Below are positions 1 through 20,621 of a DNA stretch of 64,000 nt, in pieces. Every line of letters begins with the position of its first letter. Positions within the stretch are counted from its first letter, which is position 1. A model generated the notes under the pieces. The model saw only the letters and a program-made list of their open reading frames with translations. It was not told the origin of the DNA and made no database searches. The translations under genes were made by a program, and so were the position numbers. The stretch comes from Moraxellaceae bacterium (lineage in GTDB: Bacteria; Pseudomonadota; Gammaproteobacteria; Pseudomonadales; Moraxellaceae): positions 1 to 64,000 of the forward strand of contig JAJFBF010000010.1 in assembly GCA_020697295.1 (NCBI GenBank), written 5' to 3'.

Positions 1-407
1 ACAATGAGCCGTGCTTTATCAAGATGGGTTCCCTAAATCACCGATCCATCGTTAGAAGGCCAAGTGTCTTGCTGCAACGAGTGACATCTAACGATCAGCC
101 TAGCCGGCTTGTGGCTGTGCATGTGCCGAAGAGGATATACGAAGCTTATGGTGGTTTCGTGGGAGAGAACCACGTCGTAATTCTGGAACAGCAGACCTCC
201 ACGCCTGAACTAAGCCCCAAGGAACTTGCAGAGCTCCTTAGAACGCCAACCGTAGACCGCTGCTTTCGCTGCATCTCTGGCGCCACTAATGTTTCGATAT
301 TTGAGCTTAATCAGCTGAATCTTCCGGAGCCGGGTCGTCTAAAGCGACACATTAAATTTGGGCGCGATATGGCGACGGCAGCCAGAATGGCAATCGAGGA
401 AATCTGA
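1..407 (+). CDS. DNA adenine-N6 methyltransferase, C-terminal fragment (cut by window start)
   Basis: The reading frame is open from base 3, so the gene begins upstream of the window; the ATG at 24 is internal. The visible 135 residues match the C-terminal end typical of Eco57I/type-I-like N6-adenine methylases: a VLLQRVTS segment, then a stretch ending GGFVGENHVVILEQ, then a helix-rich part with TVDRCFRCISGATNVS and a final LNLP. This end belongs to the target-recognition region; the catalytic NPPY motif would lie upstream. It sits 45 bp before the DrmE-like gene and is presumably the self-marking methylase of the DISARM cluster. An adenine methylase is the class 1 type (DrmMI); class 2 DISARM normally has a cytosine-5 methylase. 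A BREX-like PglX is a less likely alternative, because the genes that follow are DISARM. Confidence 0.75.
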   Translation, partial: NEPCFIKMGSLNHRSIVRRPSVLLQRVTSNDQPSRLVAVHVPKRIYEAYGGFVGENHVVILEQQTSTPELSPKELAELLRTPTVDRCFRCISGATNVSIFELNQLNLPEPGRLKRHIKFGRDMATAARMAIEEI

Positions 408-452
408 ATGCCCAGCTGAGCCAAGCCTAAAAGGATTTAGAGAAGAAGAAAA

Positions 453-3233
453 ATGACGCACAAGAGTCGGTTGAATCAGTTGCAGAGTGCTCTGCAAAAG
501 CGGCATGAAGCCCTGTCCAAGCTTATATCGCGAAAGCCAAGCCCTGCGACGGCCAAAGCTTCTAAACAGGAGCCGCCTGCGCTCCCCGAGACGGTGGCCG
601 AGAAAAGCGAGCCGGCTCCAGTTGTGCCTCGTGTCAAAGAGGCGATGATTCCGCTATATGCGGATGATGCCAAAACTCAGAGTGCTCCATCGGCAGCGCT
701 TCTTTCGTTGGCAGACCTGTATCTCCATGCGGCCCAACATCGGACGCGGCATATTGCTCTTCTATGGCCTGCATCACTACGATCGCTGACCCTAGTACAT
801 GCTCTGGCGACAACGACGCGCTGGAGGGAGGGCGATAAGCAGGGGATAAGAGGCCTGACCTATCCGGTTAAGTCAAACGTCTTTCATGGCCTCAACCATA
901 TCCAATTTGACCGTCAGTCAGTGCTCGCGATCGCAAGTGACCTGGTAGAGGTTGGCGAAAATGCGAAAGTGAAGCGTTCCTTTCCAGAAAAAGATCCATT
1001 CCTGTTTTCCCTGACTAATCAAAGTCTGCCGAATGATCCGAATGAGCCATTTAATCCAACAATTGGTGAGATCCTCCCGTGCTTCTTAGGGCAGCCTCAA
1101 TTTGAAGGATGGGAATCGTGCGAGTCTAGGTTGCTATCCTTGATTAGGGCGAAACTCTCCAGGCGTGCCCACGCAAAGGCGCTCCAAAGCAACTGTGCAA
1201 CGCTCGGCTGCCCAGACTCAGCGCCAGACGCCATTTTCGCGCTCGACGGTCGTATGTCAGAGGATGAGGTTAGGCAAGCGTGCAGAGCTCTGGCGAAGAG
1301 CAAGCCACCCGAAGCAATAATTCTCTTGGCAACGAGAGCGGTTCGAATGGAAGCCCCTGCCTGGAGAAAGAAGCTTGCACGCTTTGCTCTTATGCTCGAG
1401 GAAGTTTTCCGCGAAAACCCACCGGGCGTGCTCATCGTTACGGATGATCCTGTATCTGCATATAGGCTCAAGAATGAGCTATGGGAGCTGAATAATAAGA
1501 GAGATCAAGGGCAAAGATGGAATAAGCCATTTGAGTTTCGAATATCCGGCGTACCGAGCACAGTAGGTTCGAATGGTCTTTTGCCTCCAGGGACAAAGGA
1601 AAGTCTACATCCCGCGCCGCGGGAATTTGACGTGCATATAGTCGATTCTGATGCTGCAAAAGTATCTAACAAGCTATTAAAGATAGCGAATTGCCAGCCT
1701 GGCGGAAAAGATCACGCAAAGCCAATTGTTGAGGCGGCAACCTACATTTCGCGGTTGGCCGCCTTGCCATGTGGCGTAAGGCACATGTCGAACTATTTGG
1801 CGGGCCCGGATGTTTCCAATCAATCTCGAGCCAACTTTGACTGGCCAGGACATTATGGCGCTGTTCTCGAATTCGAGCGAACAATTGGCGTTGGAGAAAA
1901 TCGGCAGGCCCTACAAGATGCCATGAAGCGAGGCTCCGACTTATTTGGAAATTATCATGAGGCAACGCCGTTTGCCCACAAGCTTGCGTCAGTGGTAGCG
2001 AATGCTGCAGCAGGGAAAAGGAAAAATGTGGGCGTCATCTTTACCAGTGCCCTTTACCGACGGCTTGCGGAAAGATTTTTCGAGGAATACCGTGATTTTC
2101 CTAACGGGGTCAGCTATTCAGATATCCGAGAAAATGTATTCCTAATCCCAGCAAGTGCTCTCCTTGAGCATTTGGACGGATTGAATGGCTCAACTTTTGT
2201 ATTTGCTGGGTTAAATGATGAATGTCTTCGAATACTTCTTACAGACGACCGGATTCCAACGCATTCAGTCATATTGCTAACGCAAAAAGCCGGACAGTTC
2301 CTGAAGGCGACACTTAGGCCGTTAGTAGAGGACATGCAGGAGTTCAAGTCGTTCAAGCCACGAATGGAGTCGATTCTTAGAAATCTAAAGGATCTCCCTG
2401 ACGATGCCTCAGTGCTCACTGGGGGTGACTACGCACTCCCAGCATTCCGTGTCGAGCTTTCGTCTGATGCCGCCTCCTCTGATCATGAGGTTGATCCGGA
2501 AGCTTGGCAGATTAGATATGAAAGTGGCGCACTGCACTATCGCCGTGAAACATCTGACGCATATGTTTACGACCCTGCATCACATCATGCATCCGAGGCC
2601 GGATTTCGATCGGCTCAAGTTAAGTCGCTGGAGGTGGGAGACAAGGTCTTCGTCATGTCGGCCGAGCTTCGTGAAATGGTTGAGCAGGCGCTTCGGGAAG
2701 CAGGCATACCGATTCAATCAGATAAGACTTATGAGGCAGCGCTTAGAAGCTACCATGCTGAGGTGAAGGACCGCTTGGTTAGGAGGTTCCCCGATGGCTC
2801 AATCTCCGAAAGAGTAAGAAGCATTAGAGCCGAAATGCTCTCAATTAATCCAAAGCTGGAAAGGGAATTGCCAATTGAGCATTCCATGCGCCTCTGGATT
2901 GATCTGGAAAAGTCTCAGGAAACACCCTTTGAGGAACTTCGGCCTCAGGCCCCCCTGAAGGAGGCCGTCTTTAAGGCTTTCGCAATCGTTCTGGGATTTT
3001 CTTCATTAGAGGCAGCGTATCACTGGCAAAGAGTAATCATGGCAGTAAGAAACTCTCGTCGTCTCGATGGGCGCCATGTGTCAGACATCTATGAACATAT
3101 GCTGCTTCAGCCAGAAAGCGCTATGGCGAACTCAAATATTAGAAGAAGTACCCTGGGCTTACTATTCGAGAAGGCCCGTGAAAGCGTTGCCACGGTCGCG
3201 TATGTGGGGCCCCAAATGGAGGTGGGTAAGTGA
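453..3233 (+). CDS. DISARM-associated DrmE-like protein (926 aa)
   Basis: This is a large soluble protein with no signal peptide and no membrane segment. I see no Walker A motif, no helicase motifs and no methylase motif. The first ~85 residues are Lys/Pro/Ala-rich and probably disordered. The rest is mixed alpha/beta, with several hydrophobic beta-strand stretches that resemble a Rossmann or nuclease-like core (IILLATRAVRM near residue 290, VLIVTDDPVSA near 325, VILLTQKAGQF near 610). Size and position (between the methylase and drmA) fit DrmE, the class 2 DISARM protein of unknown function; it is clearly not DrmD, the SNF2 helicase of class 1. Its stop overlaps the drmA start (GTGA), so translation is probably coupled. 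The assignment rests on size and context, not on a recognised domain. Confidence 0.55.
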   Translation: MTHKSRLNQLQSALQKRHEALSKLISRKPSPATAKASKQEPPALPETVAEKSEPAPVVPRVKEAMIPLYADDAKTQSAPSAALLSLADLYLHAAQHRTRHIALLWPASLRSLTLVHALATTTRWREGDKQGIRGLTYPVKSNVFHGLNHIQFDRQSVLAIASDLVEVGENAKVKRSFPEKDPFLFSLTNQSLPNDPNEPFNPTIGEILPCFLGQPQFEGWESCESRLLSLIRAKLSRRAHAKALQSNCATLGCPDSAPDAIFALDGRMSEDEVRQACRALAKSKPPEAIILLATRAVRMEAPAWRKKLARFALMLEEVFRENPPGVLIVTDDPVSAYRLKNELWELNNKRDQGQRWNKPFEFRISGVPSTVGSNGLLPPGTKESLHPAPREFDVHIVDSDAAKVSNKLLKIANCQPGGKDHAKPIVEAATYISRLAALPCGVRHMSNYLAGPDVSNQSRANFDWPGHYGAVLEFERTIGVGENRQALQDAMKRGSDLFGNYHEATPFAHKLASVVANAAAGKRKNVGVIFTSALYRRLAERFFEEYRDFPNGVSYSDIRENVFLIPASALLEHLDGLNGSTFVFAGLNDECLRILLTDDRIPTHSVILLTQKAGQFLKATLRPLVEDMQEFKSFKPRMESILRNLKDLPDDASVLTGGDYALPAFRVELSSDAASSDHEVDPEAWQIRYESGALHYRRETSDAYVYDPASHHASEAGFRSAQVKSLEVGDKVFVMSAELREMVEQALREAGIPIQSDKTYEAALRSYHAEVKDRLVRRFPDGSISERVRSIRAEMLSINPKLERELPIEHSMRLWIDLEKSQETPFEELRPQAPLKEAVFKAFAIVLGFSSLEAAYHWQRVIMAVRNSRRLDGRHVSDIYEHMLLQPESAMANSNIRRSTLGLLFEKARESVATVAYVGPQMEVGK

Positions 3234-6200
3234 GGGATCAATTGCTTCGAGTAGATCCGGCTGCGTTGAATTCGACTCTGAAAGAAGCTGTTGTTGACGG
3301 CATTCTTAATCTGACATACGCGCAGCTTAGTGGCCAGGGAGTCACAGGACAGTACCTGCTTGGGGCTCGACCTCGTGCACTCTTGAATTCCGGCTTTCTC
3401 CTGCCACAGAAAAGCCTGTCAGGTGATGACGAAGTAACCTCGCCGATATGGATTTCTTCTCACGGTATGCAGATTCAGATCAGCTCTGCGAACGAAGCAG
3501 TAATTACCGTTCAGCCACGACTTTCTGTTTATGTGCGTGTCATCCCCCGTGAGGAGGATCTTAAGAGACCAAATTGCCGCCCAGTTTTCATGATGCGGCA
3601 AACAGTGGTAGACGAGATTAAGGCCGAAAGAAACCGTCGACTCGACGATGCATGGGAGCAGATAAAGGGCGAACATACATCTAGATGGAAGCATCCAGAG
3701 TGGGCTGCCGTATGTGCCAAGATTGTGGAGGATATCTATAGAGCAAAGGGCATTCCTCGCCATCTGCTTACTTCCAATATCCCTACTAATGATGCTGAGC
3801 TGGCCGAGGAGAGGTCAGATAGCGGCGAGCTTCCAGATGGAGAGTCGCCTCAGGCCGTGCCTCTAACCGCCAATGAGCCTCTTCCGATCAAGGACGAGCA
3901 TTTTGAGCCGCTGCGGGTTCCCCACAAGTGGATGCGGTTAGAGATCAAGGTTCCAGCGCTCCGGTTAGACCCCTCAAAGTCTGCGGGGGCTCTGCAGCTT
4001 GATTTAGAGGATCATGCGCGTCAGATGAACGAGGCCATTGCGCAAGGCCTCTCAGACTGGGTGCAGAGCGAGGATAAGGAGTGGGGAGGGAAAGCCTGGG
4101 GCTATCGTCATCAAATGGCGATTCCAGCAAGCCAGTATACAAAGTGGGATGACTTCCTCGAAAGGGTCAGAGCATCTCAGCTTCGCATAGTGACACCTCA
4201 GATTAAGTTGGGTTGGGAGCTAGAGCTTCAGGCTGACTGGATAGATGCCTCAAAGCGCAGTATGTTTATTGCGATAGAGAATCTGAGTGATATCCCCCGC
4301 CAGCACGTTGATGAGTCCGAAGAAGCGATTTTCCTTGTGTCTCTTGAGATGCACCTGCCAAGTGCGCTGCATCATCCACTAAAGCTTGAGCGTATAGATC
4401 CATCGTATAGATACAACAAGTATTTGTCCTATCCGGCGATGGGTCATAATTGCGGGGTTAAGCAAATATCCAGTAGTCCCGAGAGTCATACTCTTGAGAC
4501 AACTTGGACTCCTCGTTACGTGCAGCCACGTATTATTCCGACCAGCGCCAATGGCGTAGAACGCAAAGTCAGAGTACTCGCGCAGCCGGAAGGACTAGAG
4601 GCTCTGTCACCGCTTGTGCCTGCCATGAAAGCATGGTTAGAAGAATTACCTGGCCATGTGAATCCTGGTGAGGGTGTGGAGCCATCGGATGTCGATGCGA
4701 TCGAGAGAGAAGAACTGGCATTTCGTCTCGATCAAAGGAAATGGCGATCCGAGATGGAGGCCGTGGCTGAGGGGCTGAGGTGCTTGACGGAGTCGAAGGA
4801 CTCATGGCTTAAGCGGGGGCCGCAGTCTAATCCACGAGCTATGGTATTCGAAGCGTGGCTTGCAATGAATGAGGCTATGGCTGACTTCATGAAGGCCCGA
4901 TTCAAGCGAGACGACAACGAGTGGCGCCTCTTTCAGTTGGCTTTTGTGATTGCCAACATTCCTGCCTTGGCTTCCCGAATTCCAGAGTTCCAAGATTTCT
5001 ACGATGAGCGCAGAGACGACGCGGTAACACTTCTCTACTTTGCAACGGGCGGCGGTAAGTCAGAAGCATTCTTCGGCCTGCTTCTTTTCAATCTAATGCT
5101 AGATAGGCTCCGTGGGAAGCATAGGGGAGTTACCGCGCTAGTTCGGTATCCGCTGAGGCTATTGACCATTCAACAGGCGCAGCGATGCGCTAGGGTGCTC
5201 GCATTTGGCGAAAAGGTTCGCCGGAACCATGGCTATAGCGGGGACCCACTGTCTATTGGATTTTGGGTTGGTAGTGGGGGCTCGCCGAACCGCCATAGCT
5301 CCAAAGGGGTGAAAAGCATTCCCAACGTATCTGCTGTCTCACCTGAGCTTGGGCGCGAGATGTCGCTTCGTGAGAACGACACAAAGTATTCTGCAGCGAT
5401 GCGTGCGTGGCGAAAACTACCAAAATGCCCCTTCTGCGCAGGTGAGACGGCACTTCGCCTGTTTGATGACCGCGGTGATCAGATCCTCGGTCATGTTTGT
5501 ACGGAAAAGTCGTGTGACTCAAACGAGGGACAATGGAAGCCGCTCCCCTTTTACATAGTCGATGAGGACATATATGACCTCGCTCCTTCGGTACTGCTAG
5601 GAACCGTTGACAAGCTCGCATTAATTGGCCACTCGGGAAGAACCATCAGGCGCATCTTGGGCATGTTTGGAGGCGCACCTTGGGTTAGGGCTAACGGACG
5701 GCTTTACATTCCAGAGAACGGAAAGGAGATCGCCGCCGGACCAGCTGCCAAGGGAATGAGCGGCATCTTTCCAGCGTATAAGCCAGGCGCGAGTGTATTC
5801 CACGATCCATTCCCCAGCCTGATCATTCAGGACGAGGCGCACTTGCTGGACGAGTCGCTCGGAACATTTGCTGGTCTATTCGAGTCAACTCTGGATGCCA
5901 TATTTCACTACATGGCTCAGCCGCTAGCTGCGCTGGTCGCGGTAGATGGCAAAGGTCGCAGGCGTCGGCCGAAGGTCATTGCGGCGTCTGCAACTGTTTC
6001 GGAGCCCGAACGACAGCTAGAGCATCTGTATCAGAGGGCGATTCCAGCGACTCAATTTCCTGAGCCAGGCCCGTCTCTGTATGAATCGTTCTATGCAAAG
6101 CCTGCCGCAGCGGCAGAAGAGGAGCGGCGCACGCATCCGGATATTGAGGTGGCTAGCCAGCAGGCGCGCATTTACACCGCGTTCATGACTAACGGTAAGC

Positions 6201-7429
6201 CGCATACATCTACCAGCGTCGCAGTTCTATCGGGCTTTCACCTTGTGATTACGCGTCTCTTTGATGGCCTCCTAAGTGACTCTGAGCAAGAGGTGGCGGC
6301 GGCTAGGGAGATGCTAGTCGAGCATGTCTCTCAAGGCCCGCTGAGTGATCTGCATAGGGATACTCTGAGAGCAGCCAGTGCGTCCGATCTGGCAACGCTA
6401 ATTGACCTTCACCGTATCGCGCTGACCTACGTGACAAATAAGAAAGGTGGCGATCAGATCATGGCCGCGGAGGCAGAGGAAACGCGGAAGCGGCATCTCA
6501 ATGAAGGGATCCCACTAGATGGCTTGGATACTCGGTTGATAACCGGCTCAGTAGAACAGGGGGAAATCCAGGGCGTAGTTGATACTGCTCAGCGGCGCGT
6601 TGATCCCGGTAGAAAATTTCCGCCATTAAGAGAGCAGCTTCGGTCAGTGATTGCTACCTCTGCGATCTCGCATGGGGTGGATGTCGACGAGTTCAACTCC
6701 ATGTTTTTCGCTGGTATGCCCTCTGATATAGCTGAGTACATACAGGCATCATCTCGCGTGGGTCGGACGCATATTGGATTTGTTGTCTTGGTGCCTACGC
6801 CACAAAGGCGTCGAGATCGGCACATTGTCCATATATTCGATATTTTCCACCGCTTCCTGGAACGAATGGTTCAGCCAGCTGCAATTGATCGATGGGCAGA
6901 GCGAGCCGTGGAGCGAGTTTTTCCCAGCTTGTTCCAAGCATATCTCCTGGGAGTTGTCCCTACCTGCGAAGCCATTCGCCTAGACGAAGAAAGGAAGGGG
7001 GAAGTCCCGGACTTCAGTTTCATACCTAATGTCCGCAGGAAGCTCAATCAGCGTGGTGATGCATTCATTTCGGAAATTGACGAGTTTATTGAGCTCGCTG
7101 TTGGGCTTCGAGACTCCTTCTCACCAGAGGGAGAAGAGCACTATCGAGTTCGGATAGACCAAAATACTCGAAACCTTATTGTGGGCGCATGGAGCAGCCC
7201 AGTCTGGGGCAGTGGGACCATGGACGGCTATTTCAAAAGCATGACCGATCCGATGCTAAAACCCATGACATCTCTGCGTGACGTGGACCAAGCCGGAATA
7301 ATTCAAATGGCACCCAAGGATGCAAAGGGGCATAGACAGTCAGCGAATGAGACTTCGCTGGTCATGGATGTGTTACGCCATGGAGTTGCAAACAGCGAGG
7401 GCGCCGACAACGCCCAGCATGGAGAATGA
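3230..7429 (+). CDS. drmA: DISARM helicase DrmA
   Basis: A 1399-residue superfamily 2 helicase-like ATPase. Motif I is ATGGGKSEA (residues 605-613), the DEAH box is at 868-871, the SAT motif III is at 920-922, and motifs V/VI are ISHGVDVDEF and QASSRVGR (1172-1179). A zinc-binding CPFC...CTEKSC insertion lies between motifs I and II (near residues 730-765). The ~600-residue N-terminal part carries no domain I recognise. DrmA is the core of DISARM; with DrmB it is reported to bind and process incoming DNA. Translation starts at GTG 3230 after GGAGGTGGGTAA, overlapping the previous stop. Start, motifs and order (A-B-C) all agree. Confidence 0.9.
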   Translation: MRDQLLRVDPAALNSTLKEAVVDGILNLTYAQLSGQGVTGQYLLGARPRALLNSGFLLPQKSLSGDDEVTSPIWISSHGMQIQISSANEAVITVQPRLSVYVRVIPREEDLKRPNCRPVFMMRQTVVDEIKAERNRRLDDAWEQIKGEHTSRWKHPEWAAVCAKIVEDIYRAKGIPRHLLTSNIPTNDAELAEERSDSGELPDGESPQAVPLTANEPLPIKDEHFEPLRVPHKWMRLEIKVPALRLDPSKSAGALQLDLEDHARQMNEAIAQGLSDWVQSEDKEWGGKAWGYRHQMAIPASQYTKWDDFLERVRASQLRIVTPQIKLGWELELQADWIDASKRSMFIAIENLSDIPRQHVDESEEAIFLVSLEMHLPSALHHPLKLERIDPSYRYNKYLSYPAMGHNCGVKQISSSPESHTLETTWTPRYVQPRIIPTSANGVERKVRVLAQPEGLEALSPLVPAMKAWLEELPGHVNPGEGVEPSDVDAIEREELAFRLDQRKWRSEMEAVAEGLRCLTESKDSWLKRGPQSNPRAMVFEAWLAMNEAMADFMKARFKRDDNEWRLFQLAFVIANIPALASRIPEFQDFYDERRDDAVTLLYFATGGGKSEAFFGLLLFNLMLDRLRGKHRGVTALVRYPLRLLTIQQAQRCARVLAFGEKVRRNHGYSGDPLSIGFWVGSGGSPNRHSSKGVKSIPNVSAVSPELGREMSLRENDTKYSAAMRAWRKLPKCPFCAGETALRLFDDRGDQILGHVCTEKSCDSNEGQWKPLPFYIVDEDIYDLAPSVLLGTVDKLALIGHSGRTIRRILGMFGGAPWVRANGRLYIPENGKEIAAGPAAKGMSGIFPAYKPGASVFHDPFPSLIIQDEAHLLDESLGTFAGLFESTLDAIFHYMAQPLAALVAVDGKGRRRRPKVIAASATVSEPERQLEHLYQRAIPATQFPEPGPSLYESFYAKPAAAAEEERRTHPDIEVASQQARIYTAFMTNGKPHTSTSVAVLSGFHLVITRLFDGLLSDSEQEVAAAREMLVEHVSQGPLSDLHRDTLRAASASDLATLIDLHRIALTYVTNKKGGDQIMAAEAEETRKRHLNEGIPLDGLDTRLITGSVEQGEIQGVVDTAQRRVDPGRKFPPLREQLRSVIATSAISHGVDVDEFNSMFFAGMPSDIAEYIQASSRVGRTHIGFVVLVPTPQRRRDRHIVHIFDIFHRFLERMVQPAAIDRWAERAVERVFPSLFQAYLLGVVPTCEAIRLDEERKGEVPDFSFIPNVRRKLNQRGDAFISEIDEFIELAVGLRDSFSPEGEEHYRVRIDQNTRNLIVGAWSSPVWGSGTMDGYFKSMTDPMLKPMTSLRDVDQAGIIQMAPKDAKGHRQSANETSLVMDVLRHGVANSEGADNAQHGE

Positions 7430-7430
7430 A

Positions 7431-9653
7431 ATGCCCAGGAACAGTGACTTTCTCAAAAGTGAAGAGGATGAGAAGACCCTTAGCGCGCCAACAATGGCTC
7501 GCTCCAGGGGGCAGCTGGGGTCCGCCTATGCACCCGGTGCATTCTTCACCTTCGAAGGTGGACTTGGGGCATGCATATCAATCCCAGATCTTTCTGCAAC
7601 CGTCGACGATGCTCCCATACATTCTGGGACAAAGTCCCAGATCCTATTACGGCTACAAGAAATATGGCAAAGCTGGTTTGCAAGAGCGTCTTCAGCTGGG
7701 GGAGGTGACCGTGCCATTGATGCTCGCCAGTGCCTAGATGAGGCGCTGCTTCGAAATGATGCGCTCTTGCCCTTGGGGGCTGACCGCGTGGCCTTCCTGA
7801 ATCCGATCAGAATGGGCTACGCACCTGCACCCCTTAGCTTCGTGTGTAACAAGTGTCACCTCTTTCGGAGGTTCGACTCGGTACATGAAATGGCGACAGG
7901 GATTCATCACCTAAAGAAGTCAAAATGCAGTTCTGCGGATGCCAAGGGGCCATGCCAGTGGAGGCAGGTTGACGTCATATTTGTCCATTGGTCAGGCGAA
8001 TGGATGCCAGTTACGCCTGGTCGCTGGGAGTGGGATGACCGTAACAGTGCGCTCAGGCTTTTTGGGGAAGAGTGCAAGGTCTGCAGAGGTAAAGATTTCA
8101 GGCTGAACACGGACTCGCCACGAATCGGTCAATGGCATTTCTACTGTGCGAATAAGTCATGCGGGCATAAGGGCTCTAATGAGTGGAGGCAGAATGACCC
8201 ATTCACAACTGAGATTTTTAGAGACAGGTCCAGTGCGAGAGTAGGTGAGCGGCGAATGGAGCCTATCTCATACCGCGCGTCTTCCGCTTACTACTCTCAG
8301 GCCGAGCAGTTTGTCTTGTTCCCGGAGTCAGAACATCGGTTGCTAACTCTACTGGAGCCACAAAGACAGGTCGACCTATTGGCCTTCATAAGTAATAGGT
8401 TCCGACTTGGCGCGGCGGAGCTGTCTACGGAAGAAATGAAGTCGTCACTTTTAGCAAGCGGGAAAGCTGACGAGTGGGAAACTTATGAGAATTGGTCGAG
8501 AATGCGGGAACTCGCACTAAAGTCGGCGGACGAGGAGTTTATCGTGCGAGCCGAAACGGAGATAAAAAAGCTCATTTACAAATGGACGGCCGGTGATCCG
8601 CCGCTTGTGCCGCCTAGGATTGAGCTGCCAGCTGCGGTCACCGAGCAACTTCGGATACGGCCGGATTACACGAGTCGATTTGATCCGTTCGTTCTCGCGG
8701 TTGAGCATGAGGCGCTCAATCGAGGCAAGATCTCTGCACCATCGGATGGCAGAAGAGCCAAGTTTGTTCGATTCGACCATCTTGATAACGATCTGGCACC
8801 CAAGGAAAGGGATAGGAAGGAAGCACAGGAGCGCATTACAAGCACCCTAAAGGCTAAGCTCGGGATGGTTGATATCGGCCTAATCCGCGAATTTGATCTC
8901 TGTCGGTTCACGCATGGATATACGCGTGTTTCTGCAACTCCGACTCTGGAAAAGCGGAATCAACTTATGCCTGTTAGGCTAAAGCTTTTTGAGCCGCTGA
9001 GGAGTGGGAAGCGTCCGATATATGTAATGACTCAGGCAAATGAAGCGATTTACGTCAGACTTGACCCTGCTGCAGTCTACGCGTGGCTTAGGGAGGTGGG
9101 GGTTTTAGACCTCCCGTCATGGGATCCTGCCGGAACACCACGATTTGGTGGAAAGCTATTGGAAGTGGCTCAGCCTTTCGGTCGGTACTTCTCGCTTCTC
9201 AAGCCAGGAGATGCGTCAACTTACAGATATGTTTATACCCTTCTTCACACCTACGCACATGTGCTGATGAAGAATATTGCCGAGCTTTCAGGGTTGGATC
9301 TTGGCTCTCTTGGTGAATACATATTTCCTTTAGATCTGGCTTTTGTTGTTTACCGAAATGGCACAACAATGGATCTTGGAAATCTATCCTCGCTTTGGCG
9401 GAATGAGAACAACAAGTTTCTCTACAGGCTCCTTGAGCCCTCAACCCATAGATGCAATTCGGGAAATCTTTGCGATGCCTCTGGAGGCGCTTGTCCTGAT
9501 TGCATCATGATCCCAGAAACATCATGTTTGGCGCAGAACCAGCTACTTTCTAGGGCCGTTCTGAGAGGAGGCCCCGCCCCCAGGGAGGATGCTACACATC
9601 GGGGACATAGAATTCCTGGATTTCTGGAAGTTATAAATGGCGCTCATGAGTAG
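7431..9653 (+). CDS. drmB: DISARM protein DrmB (DUF1998)
   Basis: A 740-residue protein with the DUF1998 signature at its C-terminus: LLHTYAHVLMKNIAELSG, then NGTTMDLGNLSSLW, then a cysteine cluster CNSGNLCDASGGACPDC followed by CLAQNQLLSR. Two further zinc-ribbon-like regions occur in the N-terminal half (CNKC near residue 140; CKVC and CANKSCGHKG near 220-245). DrmB works with the DrmA helicase in DISARM. I chose ATG 7431 because GGAG lies 7 bases upstream and it starts 1 bp after the drmA stop; ATG 7419 in the same frame is an alternative. Its end overlaps the drmC start. Confidence 0.88.
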   Translation: MPRNSDFLKSEEDEKTLSAPTMARSRGQLGSAYAPGAFFTFEGGLGACISIPDLSATVDDAPIHSGTKSQILLRLQEIWQSWFARASSAGGGDRAIDARQCLDEALLRNDALLPLGADRVAFLNPIRMGYAPAPLSFVCNKCHLFRRFDSVHEMATGIHHLKKSKCSSADAKGPCQWRQVDVIFVHWSGEWMPVTPGRWEWDDRNSALRLFGEECKVCRGKDFRLNTDSPRIGQWHFYCANKSCGHKGSNEWRQNDPFTTEIFRDRSSARVGERRMEPISYRASSAYYSQAEQFVLFPESEHRLLTLLEPQRQVDLLAFISNRFRLGAAELSTEEMKSSLLASGKADEWETYENWSRMRELALKSADEEFIVRAETEIKKLIYKWTAGDPPLVPPRIELPAAVTEQLRIRPDYTSRFDPFVLAVEHEALNRGKISAPSDGRRAKFVRFDHLDNDLAPKERDRKEAQERITSTLKAKLGMVDIGLIREFDLCRFTHGYTRVSATPTLEKRNQLMPVRLKLFEPLRSGKRPIYVMTQANEAIYVRLDPAAVYAWLREVGVLDLPSWDPAGTPRFGGKLLEVAQPFGRYFSLLKPGDASTYRYVYTLLHTYAHVLMKNIAELSGLDLGSLGEYIFPLDLAFVVYRNGTTMDLGNLSSLWRNENNKFLYRLLEPSTHRCNSGNLCDASGGACPDCIMIPETSCLAQNQLLSRAVLRGGPAPREDATHRGHRIPGFLEVINGAHE

Positions 9654-10491
9654 CAACCTACTTGTCGCATTTGACGCGCTCGCACCAATGTGTGAAGTAT
9701 CTGCTCCGCTTTGTTTGGCGGCAAGGGAGGGACTGCTGGAGTCCTTTCAAGATTTGCATGCAATCTGCACGAGTATCGGCCTTCCCCAGGCGAGAGCAGG
9801 AGATGTTGAGCGTGCTTTGATGGCAGGTGAGGAGGCTGGCTTGTTTAGCAAGGCAACGCACATGCGATGGAGAGTGCTTGATCTTGAAAAAGTTAGCCAA
9901 ATTGCCCCTCTTCTTCAGGGAGCGCAGCTATATAAATTGCGAATTCACAGAGACATAGATGTGGTAGATGTTGTTTTAACAAAGCCGCCAGCCCCTAGTC
10001 AGGTTTCTCTCAAGTTGGAGGAGATGCTAATGAGCAGCCGCGGCTTCAAGGATACTAAGCAGCTTCTTCCAGCCATATCAGAAAAGGCTGAGAGGTCTTT
10101 CACCGTGATGACGCCCTATCTTGATAGTGTTGGCGCGTCAATCGTATTGAATCTGTTTGAACTTGCGCCCGCGCCGGATAAGTGCCTAGTCCTGCGCACT
10201 TTGAAAGACGGAGCAGAGCCGCCTGGTTTGTCAGGTATCAGTTCGCGCCTCTTAGAGCTCGGGGTTCGGGTGATGAACTTCAAGCTGGATCGTCCCAATG
10301 CGCCGGGTAATGAGACGTTTCATGCCAAGGTAGTTCTTGCAGATGCTGATGCAGCTTATGTGGGCTCGTCCAATATGAATCAGTGGTCTTTTGAATATTC
10401 CCTTGAGCTTGGTCTGTATGTAAGAGGCGGCGCTGCTGCGCGAATCGCGACCCTAATTGATGCGGTAAAGGCAGTGTCTAGCCCTATGTAG
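9637..10491 (+). CDS. drmC: DISARM phospholipase-D-like protein DrmC
   Basis: A 284-residue PLD-superfamily protein. The C-terminal HKD motif is complete: H229-A-K231, then D236, then GSSNMNQWS. I see only one clear HKD motif, so it may act as a dimer, like small PLD nucleases. DrmC is the third common DISARM gene; in published work it is the least essential for protection. ATG 9637 has GGAAG upstream and overlaps the end of drmB by 17 bp; a second ATG at 9646 is possible. The next gene converges from the other strand only 23 bp away, so this is the last gene of the DISARM transcript. Confidence 0.88.
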   Translation: MALMSSNLLVAFDALAPMCEVSAPLCLAAREGLLESFQDLHAICTSIGLPQARAGDVERALMAGEEAGLFSKATHMRWRVLDLEKVSQIAPLLQGAQLYKLRIHRDIDVVDVVLTKPPAPSQVSLKLEEMLMSSRGFKDTKQLLPAISEKAERSFTVMTPYLDSVGASIVLNLFELAPAPDKCLVLRTLKDGAEPPGLSGISSRLLELGVRVMNFKLDRPNAPGNETFHAKVVLADADAAYVGSSNMNQWSFEYSLELGLYVRGGAAARIATLIDAVKAVSSPM

Positions 10492-10514: not shown

Positions 10515-11780
10515 TCACGCTCCGTTTCGAAATCTGTTGGGAAGCAACTGAAGAGGAATCTCTCGTATCCATTTCCTTGAGGTGCGCAGTCCGCCCCCCA
10601 TCGAAGCAGCCACTTGGCTCATCCAGAGCTCTCGTTCCTCGGCGGATGCGCTACTGAGGAAGGCGAGTATTTTTGCGGAGGCGTCAGGGTCAGCTCTTGT
10701 CAGGGATGGCAGCCCAAGTCTTAGATAGAGATTGAACGTACTCGAACTCGCTGCTCCAATCAGATGTCTGGATTTTTCGTAGCTTCCCCCCGCGCGAATA
10801 TAGGCATCAAAGGCGCGATCCCTCAGTTCGATATCTTTCTGCTCCCGGACCCGTAGAGCGCGCTGCTTGCCATGGAGCATGCGTGACAACAGTCCCTTGT
10901 CCGTGAGCCCAAGAACCGATAGGGCAAGAATAATCGAGTACGGCGAGCACGAGGTTCCAAAGAGGGCCGCGTCGATGGCTGGGCAATAAATATAAGGTGC
11001 ACCGTCGGCAATCTTAGGAAAGTAGAGTTTCAGCCACGCACAAGGGGTCTTCTCTCGAGCCTGGTCGCTGATCCGGGAGCCCTTTCCCGGGATCCTTGAC
11101 CTCAGCTGATGGTTCTCCACCCCCTGCGTCAGCAGCGCGCCGACCCTCGCTTTGGTTGTACGCTTCCCGGTCGCCAGTATCCATAACGCTATGCTTGCGT
11201 AGGCACGAACGACAGGGTCCATGGAGTAGAGGGTTGGCGCCTGATCGAGGCAATCCGGTTGCCTCAACCAGTAGCCGGGGCATGCCGAATACGGCATGGC
11301 CTTCTTCACTCTGCGTATGGGCTGCTCATGCAGCGGGCACCAATGAAGTCCGCGGATTTGGTGGGTCCGGCGCCAATAAGAGAAGCCATAGGTGGCCGTA
11401 TCTTCTTCGACGCAGGCAGGACAGAGCCCGGCAGGCTGTTGCAGCCGCAGGAGTGCCGTCCGCTGCCGAAGGTGGCTTTCGTGCATATAGCTCTCGGCCC
11501 GCTCCGGGGTCGGCGCGCACAGATGCTCGATTGGACATAGCGTGTGGCGAGCGAGGTAGGTGTTTGCCTCCATTCCCGAAAGCAGGGCGGCTCTCTGGAA
11601 GATCTCGAGGGGCGAGAAGCTGATGGATTGTTCAGGGGAGCGAGCGGTCAAGCGCCTGATGAAGTGCTCAATTGAGCCTGAGGCGTTGAGGCAGGCCAGG
11701 CGCCCGACGTGTCCAGCAATGAACTCTTCTGGTAGGGGCGAAGCTGCCACTAGCTGCGCTGGTATGGGCGGCTGGTACAT
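10515..11780 (-). CDS. tniQ: TniQ-family transposon target-site protein
   Basis: This ~421-residue protein has the TniQ architecture: an N-terminal LPEEFIAGHVGRLA stretch, which is the usual 'E-S-...-R-L' opening, and then a zinc-finger module with CPACVEED and WCPLHEQPIRR (CxxC...CxxH) near residues 125-165. The C-terminal half is helical and includes an HTH-like segment (AGGSYEKSRHLIG). TniQ/TnsD proteins pick the target site and recruit TnsC. It lies 106 bp downstream of the larger TnsD-like gene on the same strand and divergent from tnsABC. ATG 11780 was taken; a GTG immediately before it (11783) is equally possible, and no strong ribosome site is visible. Confidence 0.82.
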   Translation of the reverse strand: MYQPPIPAQLVAASPLPEEFIAGHVGRLACLNASGSIEHFIRRLTARSPEQSISFSPLEIFQRAALLSGMEANTYLARHTLCPIEHLCAPTPERAESYMHESHLRQRTALLRLQQPAGLCPACVEEDTATYGFSYWRRTHQIRGLHWCPLHEQPIRRVKKAMPYSACPGYWLRQPDCLDQAPTLYSMDPVVRAYASIALWILATGKRTTKARVGALLTQGVENHQLRSRIPGKGSRISDQAREKTPCAWLKLYFPKIADGAPYIYCPAIDAALFGTSCSPYSIILALSVLGLTDKGLLSRMLHGKQRALRVREQKDIELRDRAFDAYIRAGGSYEKSRHLIGAASSSTFNLYLRLGLPSLTRADPDASAKILAFLSSASAEERELWMSQVAASMGGGLRTSRKWIREIPLQLLPNRFRNGA

Positions 11781-11886
11781 CACATTTGATGCAAGTGATT
11801 TCCATGCCCTGACTGTAGCGCCGACGATCCGCTGGGTTGGGGGAGATTCGTTGTGGCTCTGATGCCGTTGGAAACCGATCCTGACG

Positions 11887-13605
11887 TCAGTGGTGTTGTC
11901 GACGTCGCACGGGCGCCAATAGCGCGCTCGTCATCGGTAGGCGGTCCAGCTGTCCCAGCTTCGCCTTGAGTGCAGGGACCGCTTGATACACCCGTTGCAG
12001 TGTGGCGCGGGCACCCAGGTCCTCGATGGCCTGTGATACGAGCCGGGAGAGTTCTGCGTCCCGATGCCTCCAGTTCGTGCCGGCATGGTTGCCAGCGGGG
12101 ACTTTGGGGAGGGTGGCGATCTGCCCCTGCAGCCACGCCCGGTCGTTACGATAGAGCCAGGCGTACGCGGCAGGTGCGAGGGCCCTGATTGCCTTCGCAC
12201 CGAGCGTGGTCTTCCGCTTGGATGCCGAGGACCACGCGTGGCGAGCGTCAGCTTGTGCCCGGGCATGGCGGGCGGCATGCCAGGCCGTCTGTAGGCCCAC
12301 TTCAGTTCTCAGCAGCCGGGTTACCGTCTGAACCGATACTTGATGACGAGTTGCCGCCTCTGCCTTGTCTGTTCCTCTTCTCAATGCCTTTACGAGCGCA
12401 GCGCGTTTGGGTTTCGTCAGCTGCTTTGGGCGTCGCCCTACGGTGACGCCCGCCGCGGTTGCCCACGCCATCACGGTACCGGTATCCACACCGACAGAGA
12501 GGGCCACTGATCGGCATGAAGTTGCGCCATTCTTGAGCAGCGCGAGGGCGGCCGCTTTACGCGGATGGGAGCGAATGGTCTTGAGGCTGGCGGCTGGGCC
12601 TGTTGTACCTGGCGTCGCGGCCGAGCGACGATGGCTCTCAAACGACTTCCGGAAAGCCTGCCACCCGCCAAAGAGGAACTCGATTGCGGCGAGATGCCAG
12701 AGGGGGTGTGTGAGCATCCGATGGACGCTGACCAGCCGCGTCAGCATGGCGCTTGCTTGGGCTTCGGTGGCGGGCAGCGCTTGTAGCTCATCAAGATGAC
12801 GCAGCGGCCGATAGCTATCCACCAATGCTTGGGCAGCAAGAGCATGGTGGACGCGCCCCCCTTTCGCGAATCCCGCCTGCTCAAGCGCCTCAAGATAAGT
12901 CGCCCTCAATGCTGGCTGGTCGAGCAGGTAGCCCGGCGGCAGGCGATGTAGTGCCGTCGCCCCCTCGGCCAATTTCACTAATCGACCCGTTACCAGCGAC
13001 GACGGGCTCTGCAACGGCGACCGCCAAGTGGTCCCGCTTGGGAGCAGCCAGTGGAAGCGCCCAACGCCGTTACTCTTCAAGCGGCTTTCCTGCAGGGGCT
13101 CGCCATGATGTGGGCAGACCCAGGCCCCGGGCAGCTGGTGGGACACATGCCAGTAGGCCACTTGGTAGACATGACGATCCTCAGTCCGGCAAACCGGGCA
13201 ACTCTTGAGGGGATGATGGGCGCGAAAGCGCGACGTCAGCAGGCCGAGGCGATATTTCAGGGAACCGATGGCGTCGCCGGCCATGGCCGCCATCGCCACA
13301 TCCGCAAAGGCTGGCGGACGCAGCGGCAAGTAAAACCCGAGCAGGGTGTGGTCGCGGATGATGCTGGATGGAGAGCCGAGCCGGTCGGGGGCGATCTGGG
13401 AAAAGTGGCTCAGGCGGGCGGGAAGGTCGTGTTGGCTGCCCTGCCTGGGATGGCCGAATAGCGCCAGGCAGGTGCTGCGGTCTGCGGCGTGGCCTGCTAG
13501 TACATGAATACGTGAGCAAATGCTGAATACGGTTTCGTCTGGTAGCCAGTTTGGCACCACTTGTCGGGCGTCTGTAACACCTGTCTCGGGCCGCGGCTTG
13601 CGCAC
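11887..13605 (-). CDS. tnsD: TnsD-like TniQ-family target selector
   Basis: A ~572-residue member of the TniQ/TnsD family. The N-terminus has PNWLPDETVFSICSRIHVLAG, and the zinc module is CPVCRTEDRHVYQVAYWHVS followed by VCPHHGEP. The long C-terminal part contains two HTH-like repeats (CRSVALSVGVDTGTVMAWA and EAATRHQVSVQTVTRLLR), as expected for a protein that binds a specific attachment site. Having both a TnsD-like and a shorter TniQ protein suggests two targeting pathways, one for a fixed chromosomal site and one for other sites. GTG 13605 is preferred because AAGGGG lies 9 bases upstream; TTG 13614 is an alternative. The gene is divergent from the XRE gene at 13751. Confidence 0.83.
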   Translation of the reverse strand: MRKPRPETGVTDARQVVPNWLPDETVFSICSRIHVLAGHAADRSTCLALFGHPRQGSQHDLPARLSHFSQIAPDRLGSPSSIIRDHTLLGFYLPLRPPAFADVAMAAMAGDAIGSLKYRLGLLTSRFRAHHPLKSCPVCRTEDRHVYQVAYWHVSHQLPGAWVCPHHGEPLQESRLKSNGVGRFHWLLPSGTTWRSPLQSPSSLVTGRLVKLAEGATALHRLPPGYLLDQPALRATYLEALEQAGFAKGGRVHHALAAQALVDSYRPLRHLDELQALPATEAQASAMLTRLVSVHRMLTHPLWHLAAIEFLFGGWQAFRKSFESHRRSAATPGTTGPAASLKTIRSHPRKAAALALLKNGATSCRSVALSVGVDTGTVMAWATAAGVTVGRRPKQLTKPKRAALVKALRRGTDKAEAATRHQVSVQTVTRLLRTEVGLQTAWHAARHARAQADARHAWSSASKRKTTLGAKAIRALAPAAYAWLYRNDRAWLQGQIATLPKVPAGNHAGTNWRHRDAELSRLVSQAIEDLGARATLQRVYQAVPALKAKLGQLDRLPMTSALLAPVRRRQHH

Positions 13606-13750
13606 GGTTCCCAACCCCTTGAAAAGTTTAGCGAATACCGGCGGTATGGATTTAATTCTTCAAAAACAATGACATACGAATAAATATGGCATTGCGAGGG
13701 GCGCATTCCTAGCCCATAGTTTTTCCAATTCAGGAAATCCGACATCTGTC

Positions 13751-14152
13751 ATGAGCGAAAGTCTCGGTGACTACCTCAAGCGCTTACGAGTGTCGCGGCG
13801 GTTGAACCAACAGTCGTTGGCGATCCGACTTTGTATTGGCGCGCCCTACCTGAGCCGCCTTGAGCACGGAAAGAAGCTCTACCTCAATGACGTCCTTATG
13901 GCGCGCTTGGAAGAGGCTCTGAGCCTGTCACCGGAAGAGCGGCAGCGTCTCGGCAGTCTCCGGGACGCCGCCGTCGGTCGCATCCCGATCGCACCGGACA
14001 CCAGCTATGCCGCCGTGGACCTGATCAAGCTCATGGCTGACGCTGCGCCGAGTCTGAGTGAGGCTCAGTTGGGCACCATTCGGGAATCCGTACAGTGCAT
14101 GCTCAAGATGATCGCGCTTACGGAGGATAGAGAAATGACTGCGCAGAAATGA
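13751..14152 (+). CDS. XRE-family HTH regulator of the transposon core
   Basis: A 133-residue protein with an N-terminal lambda-repressor-like HTH (LGDYLKRLRVSRRLNQQSLA then IGAPYLSRLEHGKK, residues ~4-55) and a helical C-terminal part that may dimerise. It lies between the divergent tnsD and the tnsABC operon, with ~145 bp of A+T-rich sequence before it, an ideal place for a repressor acting on both directions. A perfect 12-bp stem-loop starts one base after its stop codon. Function as the transposition regulator is inferred from position only. Confidence 0.75.
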   Translation: MSESLGDYLKRLRVSRRLNQQSLAIRLCIGAPYLSRLEHGKKLYLNDVLMARLEEALSLSPEERQRLGSLRDAAVGRIPIAPDTSYAAVDLIKLMADAAPSLSEAQLGTIRESVQCMLKMIALTEDREMTAQK

Positions 14153-14180
14153 CAAGGGCCACTCCGTGGAGTGGCCCTTG
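14153..14180 (+). terminator. Perfect 12-bp stem-loop after the XRE gene
   Basis: CAAGGGCCACTC and GAGTGGCCCTTG flank a CGTG loop, starting right after the TGA of the regulator gene. No T-run follows, so it may stabilise or attenuate the transcript rather than terminate it fully; tnsA starts 165 bp further on. Confidence 0.45.
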
Positions 14181-14344
14181 GGAGCAGGCATCCTTCGATA
14201 CCCACACCTCGCACGTTCAGTATCGAAGTGCCTTCCTCCCCCGTCAATACCGGTGTCGCACGACTTTTGCGCGATCCAGGGCGCCGGCTTGCCTGCAGTG
14301 GGCAAGTGGCAAGGCTAGCCACGACTCTGTCGGGGAGCACAGCG

Positions 14345-15304
14345 ATGGGAAAACGTCTTACGGAAGCGCGGTTGCGCACAATCGTGGAGCGGCAGTGTCC
14401 GCCAAAATGGGGAGTGGCGTACGAGCCAGCGATACAGGTCTGCACCAGCGAGGCGCCGCCCATTAGCCGGCCCTCGGTACTGAATAGCCGGCGCCTGGGC
14501 CGGACGGTTCATGTGCTGTCACAGCCGGAGCGCCATGCCGCCTTGCTGGCTCTCTATCATCCAGGTCTGCGGGACCTGCATGAGCAGAGGATGCTGTCGC
14601 CGAGCCAGATCGAGCATCCCCTCACCACGTATCCTGGGTTGATGCAGGTTGGGCTGTCCTACTCTCGGGGAACGCGCGCAAGCGCGGAGGACCTCCGATG
14701 TCTCGGCCAGCATCCCTGGGTTTGGGCGGCGGACACGGGGGAGCGCATCGCGTTTCCCTACATTGGTGACTTTCTACTCTTCCTCGAAGACCGGGATGGG
14801 CTGTATTGCATCAACTGGACGGTCAAGAAATCAGCTGCCGGCTTCGATCGGAGCCCGATCGATATCCGCGCTGCCTTGATTGCGGAAGAGCGCGGTAGCC
14901 AAGCCGTCGCCAACCGGCATCGGATTGAAGAATGCTATTACCAGGAGTTCGGAATCCGGACGGAACGGGTGACCGGCGATGCAATTCCCCACAGCCTGGC
15001 GTGTACTCTGGATCAGCTCTTCACATGGGAGCGGCGTGATGACCATCTGACACCCTCGCAACGAGCCTGGCTTCTATCTGAAGCCAGGGTGCTGGTGGTC
15101 AGGGGAGAGGTCATCACTGCGCACATCCCCCGACTGCAGAGCGAGCTTGGTTGTGGTCCCTACGATGTCCTCTGCGCCATCTATCAGGGCATCTGGACGC
15201 GAGCCATCCGGGTAGACCTGTTCTCGTCGATCTGCATCGACGCGCCGTTGGAGCCAGAGCGGAACGATGTACTGCTCCACTATGCCCATTGGTTCCAACG
15301 CTAG
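14345..15304 (+). CDS. tnsA: TnsA-like transposon endonuclease
   Basis: This 319-residue protein resembles the TnsA endonuclease, which cuts the 5' ends of the element. The restriction-enzyme-like core shows YIGDFLLFLEDRDG followed by YCINWTVKKS, corresponding to the catalytic Asp and the beta-strand with the catalytic Lys; an upstream Glu occurs in the helix RDLHEQRML. The Gln usually found two residues before the Lys is not conserved (NWTVK). I chose ATG 14345 because GGGGAG lies 7 bases upstream; the frame is open further upstream, but that part has no ribosome site. It is 2 bp from tnsB. The size is slightly larger than Tn7 TnsA (273 aa). Confidence 0.78.
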   Translation: MGKRLTEARLRTIVERQCPPKWGVAYEPAIQVCTSEAPPISRPSVLNSRRLGRTVHVLSQPERHAALLALYHPGLRDLHEQRMLSPSQIEHPLTTYPGLMQVGLSYSRGTRASAEDLRCLGQHPWVWAADTGERIAFPYIGDFLLFLEDRDGLYCINWTVKKSAAGFDRSPIDIRAALIAEERGSQAVANRHRIEECYYQEFGIRTERVTGDAIPHSLACTLDQLFTWERRDDHLTPSQRAWLLSEARVLVVRGEVITAHIPRLQSELGCGPYDVLCAIYQGIWTRAIRVDLFSSICIDAPLEPERNDVLLHYAHWFQR

Positions 15305-15306
15305 TC

Positions 15307-20557: not shown

Positions 20558-20621
20558 GCGACTCTACCTTTACAGATCGAAGTGAAGGCCACGGGCGGCA
20601 AAGCCGCCGGTGGCCCGGAGT

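What the first reader, a model, noticed from the sequence alone, without database searches (positions are those of the whole stretch)
1..10491. DISARM cluster of mixed class: adenine methylase with a DrmE-like protein
The published classes pair DrmD (SNF2 helicase) with the adenine methylase DrmMI (class 1), and DrmE with the cytosine methylase DrmMII (class 2). Here the upstream methylase fragment has an adenine-N6 C-terminus, while the next gene is a DrmE-sized protein without helicase motifs. A mixture of the two classes, or a new subclass, would be new.
Basis: partly seen in the sequence, partly recalled or inferred. Interest (0 to 1): 0.7.

Follow-up and report, generated by a model that had tools for sequence, protein, structure and literature searches.

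The report
DrmE-type DISARM with adenine methylase
This is a bacterial anti-phage gene cluster of the DISARM kind in which a distant DrmE relative sits beside an adenine-type DNA methylase instead of the usual cytosine one; the same gene set recurs in scattered alpha- and betaproteobacteria and looks like an unnamed third flavour of a known defence system.

Summary
The cluster is real: C-terminal fragment of an N6-type DNA methylase (3-407, cut by the contig end), a 926-aa protein (453-3233), DrmA, DrmB and a PLD nuclease of DrmC type. In 18 of 18 genome loci found with the 926-aa family, methylase, 926-aa family, DrmA and DrmB stand in this order (DrmC in 12). Relatives' methylases carry NPPY (22 of 23) or NPPF (1). 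One DrmD and one C5-methylase query found nothing in 25 related loci. The 926-aa protein fails every DrmE profile HMM, but profile-profile comparison links it to DrmE (97%, E 4e-11; mismatched controls at most 0.8%). Its DrmA groups with DrmE-bearing systems, apart from class 1. The methylase is a short TaqI/Eco57I-type enzyme, not DrmMI. So not a class 1 x class 2 chimera, but a DrmE-lineage DISARM with an adenine methylase in the C5 slot: a conserved subclass for which I found no name. Predicted structure suggests that the DrmE-like protein is an SF2-helicase fold without the ATP-binding motif I, with an intein-like (Hint) barrel near its C-terminus. New variant of a known kind. Function is inferred only.

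The parts
3..407 (+). C-terminal 134 aa of an N6-type DNA methyltransferase (TaqI/Eco57I-like); N-terminal part lost at the contig end
   Evidence: PADLOC PDLC03338 E 5.5e-37; 44% identical to residues 446-572 of the 584-aa Polaromonas N-6 DNA methylase; 57-58% identical to loci L058 and L060
453..3233 (+). 926-aa DrmE-like protein: predicted SF2-helicase fold without motif I, plus a C-terminal Hint-like barrel with helical insert
   Evidence: No HMM family; hhalign to DrmE family Prob 97.2, E 3.8e-11; AlphaFold2 and fold searches; motif counts
3230..7429 (+). DrmA-like YprA-family SF2 helicase, 1399 aa, motif I ATGGGKS and motif II QDEAH present
   Evidence: PADLOC DrmA E 6.9e-87; NCBIfam DrmAS 350 bits, below the cut-off of 950; PDB 7s9v_A DrmA E 1.9e-46; motifs
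7419..9653 (+). DrmB-like protein; frame open from 7320, start probably 7419 or 7431
   Evidence: PADLOC DrmB E 2.3e-17; NCBIfam DrmB_fam E 8.5e-14, below cut-off; PDB 7s9v_B DrmB E 0.023; no Pfam family
9637..10491 (+). DrmC-like phospholipase-D-family nuclease with an HxK(x4)D motif read in the sequence
   Evidence: PADLOC DrmC E 7.4e-10; Pfam PLDc_2 E 1.2e-8

Best explanation
A DISARM operon, cut by the contig end, of a conserved subclass without a name that I could find: N6-adenine methylase (M), DrmE-like protein (E), DrmA, DrmB, DrmC. Most likely mechanism: M marks host DNA by adenine-N6 methylation at its sites (inferred from the NPPY motif of relatives). DrmA and DrmB form the ATP-driven translocase that loads on unmarked or single-stranded foreign DNA (inferred from homology to DrmAB of PDB 7s9v). 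E, a helicase-like protein without motif I and so probably without ATPase activity, docks on DrmAB and/or DNA as a sensing or loading subunit in place of the SNF2 helicase DrmD of class 1 (inferred). DrmC cuts or assists (inferred; reported as non-essential in studied DISARM). Shown here: gene content, conservation, remote homology of E to DrmE, lack of motif I in E, DrmA phylogeny. Not shown: defence activity, methylation, any complex.
For: 18 of 18 genome loci found with the E family carry M, E, A and B in this order, and C in 12 of 18; plasmid loci L006, L007, L008 and L029 and genome locus L068 also carry M-E-A-B. A DrmD query gives no hit in 25 such loci, while it finds itself in L036 and DrmD in the three other class 1 loci L037-L039. 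E vs DrmE: Prob 97.2, E 3.8e-11, 528 collinear columns; a strict four-member DrmE profile gives 89.7 and 93.4, leave-one-out 71.4-95.5; mismatched control profiles of E or DrmE at most 0.8; 20 of 20 column-shuffled profiles at most 0.1. DrmA: N6-E group 14 of 14 rows, support 100/100, on the same side as all 9 DrmE-bearing rows of that tree and apart from its 4 class 1 rows across a 100/100 branch. The solved DrmA is matched strongly and DrmB weakly.
Against: No family HMM calls the 926-aa protein DrmE (relatives L030 and L031), so homology rests on profile-profile comparison with few sequences; single DrmE sequences are not enough. The window's own methylase lacks its catalytic part. The methylase slot is not fixed: Afipia L030 has an NPPY enzyme not detectably related, Rhizobium L031 has it downstream, L032 has none on the operon strand. 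DrmC was not found in 6 of 18 genome loci, one of them cut by its contig end. Locus L071 (C5 methylase, DrmE over NCBI's cut-off) has a DrmA nearer to class 1 DrmA, and L053 (C5 methylase) lies on the class 1 side of the tree, so DrmE or class 2 content and DrmA lineage do not always agree. The experimentally studied Bacillus DrmE was not in my reference set.
Confidence: 0.74

Rival explanations
1. The 926-aa family is not DrmE but an unrelated protein that has taken the same gene position; the system is then a new DISARM-like class with its own accessory subunit.
For: No HMMER hit to PADLOC or NCBIfam DrmE models; NCBI's DrmE model finds 2 of 398 Pseudomonadota genomes and not the window's own; identity in the alignment only 14%.
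Against: Collinear profile match at 97% with mismatched controls at most 0.8% and column-shuffled controls at most 0.1%; both families independently show weak matches to inteins at roughly the same place.
Confidence: 0.13
2. Decayed remnant: the operon is broken at the methylase (for example by an insertion) and no longer functions.
For: The contig ends inside the methylase and the rest was not found in an assembly rated 99.17% complete (5.02% contamination); some related loci are visibly broken (IS66 within DrmB of L029, frame breaks in L014 and L025).
Against: The methylase frame is open and aligns to relatives from its first codons; the other four frames are open with overlapping or nearly touching ends; DrmA motifs I and II are present.
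Confidence: 0.09
3. Class 1 DISARM in which DrmD was lost or replaced, i.e. a true class 1 x class 2 hybrid.
For: Both have an adenine-type methylase ahead of DrmA; the genome has a DrmD-like SNF2 gene elsewhere.
Against: The methylase is not DrmMI; DrmA is not in the class 1 group; the DrmD-like gene on contigs C6/C37 sits with a ~1700-aa methylase and a one-piece YprA-type helicase, an ARMADA-like set of its own.
Confidence: 0.03

Closest known systems
DISARM class 2 (DrmMII C5 methylase, DrmE, DrmA, DrmB, DrmC), e.g. Halobacterium L062, Halorhabdus L064
   Same: DrmE homologue next to split DrmA/DrmB and a PLD nuclease; DrmA of the haloarchaeal systems is on the same side of the tree
   Different: N6-type methylase instead of C5; E at about 14% identity and below all HMM thresholds; the loci found here are all from Pseudomonadota
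DISARM class 1 (DrmD, DrmMI, DrmA, DrmB, DrmC), e.g. L036-L039
   Same: Adenine-type methylase, DrmA, DrmB, often DrmC
   Different: No DrmD found in relatives; methylase less than half as long and of another family; distinct DrmA group
DISARM-like classes left uncharacterised in the YprA tree of Bell et al. 2025 (PMC12458937)
   Same: Their Figure 1 legend mentions many uncharacterised DISARM-like classes; this clade may be among them
   Different: The main text does not mention DrmE; its supplementary tables were not looked at
ARMADA
   Same: YprA-family helicase and N6 methylase
   Different: ARMADA, per PMC12458937, has a BrxHII/RapA-like helicase and a one-piece YprA helicase; here the helicase is split into DrmA and DrmB and E stands in front of it
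XPF and Hef helicase domains
   Same: Predicted fold of residues about 63-630 (Z 11.4 Hef, 10.4 XPF); XPF is, from general knowledge, a helicase-inactive relative
   Different: About 12% identity; low Foldseek TM-scores (0.12-0.25 of the query's list); domain placement differs (rmsd 7-9 A)

Membership tests
DISARM (general) | DrmA helicase | tested here: met
   PADLOC E 6.9e-87; 7s9v_A E 1.9e-46; below NCBIfam DrmAS cut-off, 350 of 950 bits
DISARM (general) | Separate DrmB | tested here: met
   PADLOC E 2.3e-17; NCBIfam DrmB_fam E 8.5e-14, below its cut-off; Pfam reports no family for it
DISARM (general) | PLD nuclease DrmC | tested here: met
   PADLOC E 7.4e-10, Pfam PLDc_2 over cut-off; below NCBIfam DrmC cut-off
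DISARM (general) | Phage or plasmid restriction by the cluster | not testable with these tools
   Needs cloning and challenge
DISARM class 1 | DrmD SNF2 helicase in the operon | tested here: inconclusive
   Window's upstream is off the contig; 0 of 25 related loci and not L068 show a hit to one DrmD query
DISARM class 1 | DrmMI methylase | tested here: not met
   Fragment and relatives have best model PDLC03338 MTase_II; no DrmMI among the best 25 families shown for three relatives, while L036 DrmMI hits PDLC02643 at 1103 bits
DISARM class 1 | No DrmE (PADLOC type I prohibits drmE, passage) | tested here: inconclusive
   E not called by DrmE HMMs but homologous by hhalign
DISARM class 2 | DrmMII C5 methylase | tested here: not met
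   Methylase is N6 type; no hit to the L035 C5 query in the 25 related loci; window's own upstream not readable
DISARM class 2 | DrmE by profile HMM | tested here: not met
   No PADLOC or NCBIfam DrmE hit
DrmE superfamily | Homology over most of the length | tested here: met
   hhalign Prob 97.2, E 3.8e-11, 528 columns; strict profile 89.7 and 93.4, over 170 and 333 columns
SF2 helicase (active) | Motif I (Walker A) in E | tested here: not met
   0 of 21 sequences; same pattern finds 26 of 26 DrmA
SF2 helicase (active) | Motif II (DExH/D) in E | tested here: inconclusive
   Strict pattern 0 of 21; DEPH at one aligned place in 3 of 21, DDP in the window and most others
SF2 helicase fold (E) | Two RecA-like domains | tested here: met
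   Foldseek, 28 PDB matches at E<=0.001, SF2-type helicases and remodellers, TM-scores low; Hef Z 11.4, rmsd 8.8, 373 aligned; model pLDDT 71, pTM 0.59, so moderate
Hint/intein fold (E C-terminus) | Hint beta-barrel | tested here: inconclusive
   Top 15 VIA rows are inteins or Hedgehog, best Z 7.5, rmsd 2.2 over 66; Foldseek none at E<=0.001; PDB profile hit 2lcj E 0.005; DrmE profile has 4 inteins among 10 weak hits, E 0.055-1.0, behind two non-inteins
ARMADA | BrxHII-like helicase plus one-piece YprA helicase | tested here: not met
   DrmA and DrmB are separate genes; E lacks motif I and has no SNF2 match

The most novel reading that the evidence does not exclude
A third DISARM class defined by a short N6-adenine methylase plus a highly diverged DrmE, and a first structural reading of DrmE: a helicase-dead SF2 scaffold that ends in an intein-like (Hint) barrel carrying a helical insert, acting as the DNA- or DrmAB-docking counterpart of the SNF2 helicase DrmD of class 1.
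Probability: 0.5. Interest if true: 0.62.

Novelty: new variant of a known kind. Interest (0 to 1): 0.48.

Why it matters
DISARM typing by PADLOC, as described in its 2022 paper, ties DrmE to a C5 methylase and prohibits it in type I, so this subclass fits neither type as written, and its E protein is invisible to the DrmE models tried here. If DrmE is a dead SF2 helicase with a Hint-like barrel, its unknown role becomes testable: does it dock on DrmAB or on DNA, and does it do DrmD's job without ATP? It also suggests that the methylated base is exchangeable within DISARM while the E-A-B core is kept.

Tried and rejected
Upstream flank: the PADLOC methylase family and the full Polaromonas methylase were searched in the own genome; only the window fragment and weak hits on C9 and C37 came up. 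The catalytic motif of this copy cannot be read.

DrmE by HMMER: PADLOC, NCBIfam and Pfam give nothing for the window protein, and the PADLOC DrmE model PDLC02636 matched 0 of 398 Pseudomonadota genomes. hhalign of the E family against single DrmE candidates was not significant (best E 0.024, Prob 2.0). Profile against profile worked. L053 (Lactiplantibacillus, C5 methylase) has an E-position protein with no significant match to DrmE models or to the E family; it was left out of the DrmE profiles. L072 (NCBI DrmE model on part of a 1798-aa frame) was left out too.

DrmD hits in the own genome (C37 and C6) looked at first like a refutation; they belong to a separate ARMADA-like set.

My first Walker A pattern also missed motif I of DrmA, so it was no test; one search repeats it with a pattern that finds 26 of 26 DrmA. 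The looser motif II pattern there showed DEPH in 3 of 21 E proteins, against a flat 'no helicase motifs'. One of ten DrmE-position proteins (L065) has a GGGKT stretch at about residue 549.

Viral contigs: no relative of E found. The window's Tn7-like genes have no tblastn match at E 1e-3 in the loci searched, so no mobile-element link to the subclass is claimed. A test holding DrmE and N6-E rows together as one clade did not finish.

Novelty searches in the held library. No paper naming this combination was seen in the listings; most subscription papers are not held, including Ofir et al. 2018, whose class definitions I recall only. Papers: PMC12458937 - abstract, introduction, parts 1 and 2 of 3 of the results, figure legends and passages; PMC9142583 - abstract, introduction and passages; PMC9252829 and PMC12904381 - passages; all other listed papers - search listing only.
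Full report
What is there. The window begins at base 1 of contig C75 of a 145-contig assembly. On the plus strand lie a 134-codon open fragment (3-407), a 926-aa frame (453-3233), a 1399-aa frame (3230-7429), a frame open from 7320 to 9653 and a 284-aa frame (9637-10491). PADLOC models call them, in order, type II methylase family PDLC03338 (E 5.5e-37, only positions 464-577 of 604), nothing, DrmA (6.9e-87), DrmB (2.3e-17) and DrmC (7.4e-10). The chains of the solved DrmAB complex are matched by DrmA (7s9v_A, E 1.9e-46) and weakly by DrmB (7s9v_B, E 0.023). NCBIfam's DrmA, DrmB and DrmC models are matched too, but all below their curated cut-offs.

Which methylase. The window holds only the C-terminal end of the enzyme, and the rest was not found in the assembly. 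Relatives were read instead. In the Polaromonas plasmid operon it is a 584-aa N-6 DNA methylase; Pfam calls it Eco57I and N6_Mtase. Of 23 relatives' methylases, 22 carry NPPY and one NPPF; two of the 23 are frame-broken (L014, L025). L068 has NPPY too. It is not DrmMI: the class 1 control L036 DrmMI is 1308 aa and hits a PADLOC DrmMI model with 1103 bits, while DrmMI is not among the 25 best families shown for the three relatives tested.

How conserved is the set. A scan of one genome per species with an alignment of four E proteins returned 18 loci. tblastn on these shows methylase, E, DrmA and DrmB in that order in 18 of 18, and DrmC in 12 of 18; one of the six without DrmC (L022) is cut by its contig end. 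L014 and L025 show frame breaks, L019 a stop in E. The hosts include Rhizobiaceae, Phyllobacteriaceae, Nitrobacteraceae, Paracoccaceae, Roseobacteraceae, Sphingomonadaceae, Caulobacteraceae, Comamonadaceae and Oxalobacteraceae. Plasmid loci L006, L007, L008 and L029 repeat it, and so does genome locus L068. Exceptions: L030 has a methylase with SNPPY that tblastn does not connect at E 1e-4, L031 has it downstream, L032 has none on the operon strand. One DrmD query (from L036) gave no hit at E 1e-4 in the 25 loci L006-L026 and L029-L032, but found itself in L036 and DrmD in L037, L038 and L039; one C5 query gave no hit in the 25. Upstream reach differs; in L017 it is only about 1.6 kb. The family is rare: the E profile finds 3 of 398 Pseudomonadota genomes, the window's own included, and the window protein alone finds 1 of 194 relatives, again its own genome.

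Is the 926-aa protein DrmE. By HMM, no: PADLOC, NCBIfam and Pfam are silent, and NCBI's DrmE model finds 2 of 398 genomes and not this one. By profile-profile comparison, yes at a distance. The 21-row E alignment (A2) against nine DrmE-position proteins (A4), three of them named DrmE by NCBI, gives Prob 97.2, E 3.8e-11 over 528 collinear columns. E and DrmE profiles against DrmA, DrmB, DrmC, DrmD, DrmMI and methylase profiles give at most 0.8; the positive controls DrmA-DrmA and DrmB-DrmB give 100. The one mismatched pair above 1 was DrmA against DrmD, 12.6, two SF2 helicases. A strict profile of four DrmE (three NCBI-named, one over NCBI's cut-off) gives 89.7 and 93.4 in the two directions (170 and 333 columns), 71.4-95.5 with one left out, and 20 of 20 column-shuffled A4 profiles give at most 0.1. 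A single DrmE sequence alone is not enough.

What E looks like. AlphaFold2 on 16 permitted rows gave pLDDT 71 and pTM 0.59. Foldseek's best PDB matches are SF2 helicases: LGP2, Hef, RIG-I, E about 1e-5, with low TM-scores. VIA gives Hef Z 11.4 and XPF Z 10.4 over about 370 residues at rmsd 7-9 A. The best viral models are mostly SF2 and SNF2 helicases too. Motif I is absent in 21 of 21, while the same pattern finds it in 26 of 26 DrmA (my earlier pattern was no test because it missed DrmA's). At the place where the P-loop would be, after the first strand of the helicase-like part, stands an invariant Trp-Pro. Motif II is not clean: three betaproteobacterial relatives have DEPH at one place where the window has DDPV. 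So 'dead helicase' rests on motif I. The last 278 residues, folded alone (pLDDT 75.6, pTM 0.52), match inteins and Hedgehog Hint domains in the 15 best VIA rows (best Z 7.5, rmsd 2.2 over 66 residues), below the tool's Z 8 caution line; Foldseek had no match at E<=0.001. By sequence, the E profile hits an intein in the PDB (2lcj E 0.005; two more at 0.20 and 0.24 and a DNA ligase at 0.24), the C-terminal profile alone hits the same one at E 0.18, and the DrmE profile has four inteins among its ten weak hits (E 0.055 to 1.0, columns 587-664), behind two unrelated chains (E 0.0085 and 0.03). None is decisive alone; their agreement in place is the argument. No His-Asn-nucleophile end is present in the last 60 residues of 21 of 21, so protein splicing is unlikely.

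Where its DrmA belongs. In a 33-row tree the N6-E rows form one group (14 of 14, 100/100). They share a side with all 9 DrmE-bearing rows and are cut off from 4 class 1 rows by a 100/100 branch. An earlier 37-row tree gives the same group (24 of 24, SH-aLRT 100). The order of branches inside the DrmE side is not settled, and long branches are many. L071, a C5-DrmE system, has DrmA nearer to class 1 (tblastn), and L053 (C5) lies on the class 1 side, so lineages have been reshuffled. Other loci on the DrmE side also carry amino-methylases: L063 has both a C5 and a TaqI-like NPPY enzyme, L034 (no E listed) likewise, L040 and L065 have DPPY proteins.

Mechanism. Known DISARM: DrmAB is autoinhibited, is activated by DNA with a 5' overhang, and DrmC appears non-essential (PMC9142583, abstract, introduction and passages). 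By homology the present system should mark self with 6mA and use DrmAB on unmarked or single-stranded invading DNA. E, lacking motif I, is best read as a docking or sensing subunit where class 1 has DrmD. This last step is inference.

Known or new. PADLOC's type I requires DrmD and DrmMI and prohibits DrmE; type II requires DrmE and DrmMII (passage). This set fits neither as written. Bell et al. 2025 mention many uncharacterised DISARM-like classes in a figure legend and do not mention DrmE in the main text. No paper naming the combination appeared in the listings. I file it as a new variant of a known kind.

Noticed in passing
10515-18695: Tn7-like genes directly downstream: TniQ (-), TnsD-type TniQ (-, Pfam TnsD E 3.2e-45), then on + frames in TnsA and TnsB position (no Pfam hit at 0.01; assigned by position and look only) and an AAA ATPase. 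The DISARM operon may be cargo, but no ends were mapped.
   Followed up: partly
Own genome contigs C6 (3' end, L052) and C37 (5' end, L051): An ARMADA-like set apparently split over two contigs: SNF2 helicase (283 + 799 aa), ~1700-aa Eco57I-type methylase, ~2000-aa helicase with MZB domain whose C-terminus matches Peptidase_S24 (E 3.3e-6, over cut-off), with no Vsr nuclease match in Pfam at 0.001, then a DnaJ protein.
   Followed up: partly
20066-23096 (-): JAB plus ThiF fusion (464 aa), DUF6527 protein and an LRAT-type protein: may be a ubiquitin-like conjugation or deconjugation cassette.
   Followed up: no
18760-19602 (+): Dual-specificity-phosphatase-like protein with an N-terminal RAMA match below its cut-off, next to the AAA gene.
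   Followed up: no
L006, L009, L010 E proteins, residues 335-351: DEPH at the end of a strand, aligned with DDPV in the window and DDPW in most alphaproteobacterial relatives: possibly a worn motif II.
   Followed up: partly
L040 (Streptomyces cellulosae plasmid): A DrmE-DrmA-DrmB-PLD set lies beside a TnsA-like and transposase gene pair; the window's transposition proteins find no match there.
   Followed up: partly
L057 (Rhizobium rhizogenes plasmid): DISARM-like DrmA/DrmB with UvrD helicase, NERD protein and C5 methylase, near Mu-type transposase and TniB genes.
   Followed up: no
L041 (G006, same genus): DrmD-like gene with a C5-methylase-like gene close upstream and the start of a DrmMI-like gene downstream (tblastn).
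   Followed up: no
L068 (G530): Methylase C-terminus 57% identical to the window's but E only 25% and DrmA 43%: the methylase end evolves more slowly than E.
   Followed up: no
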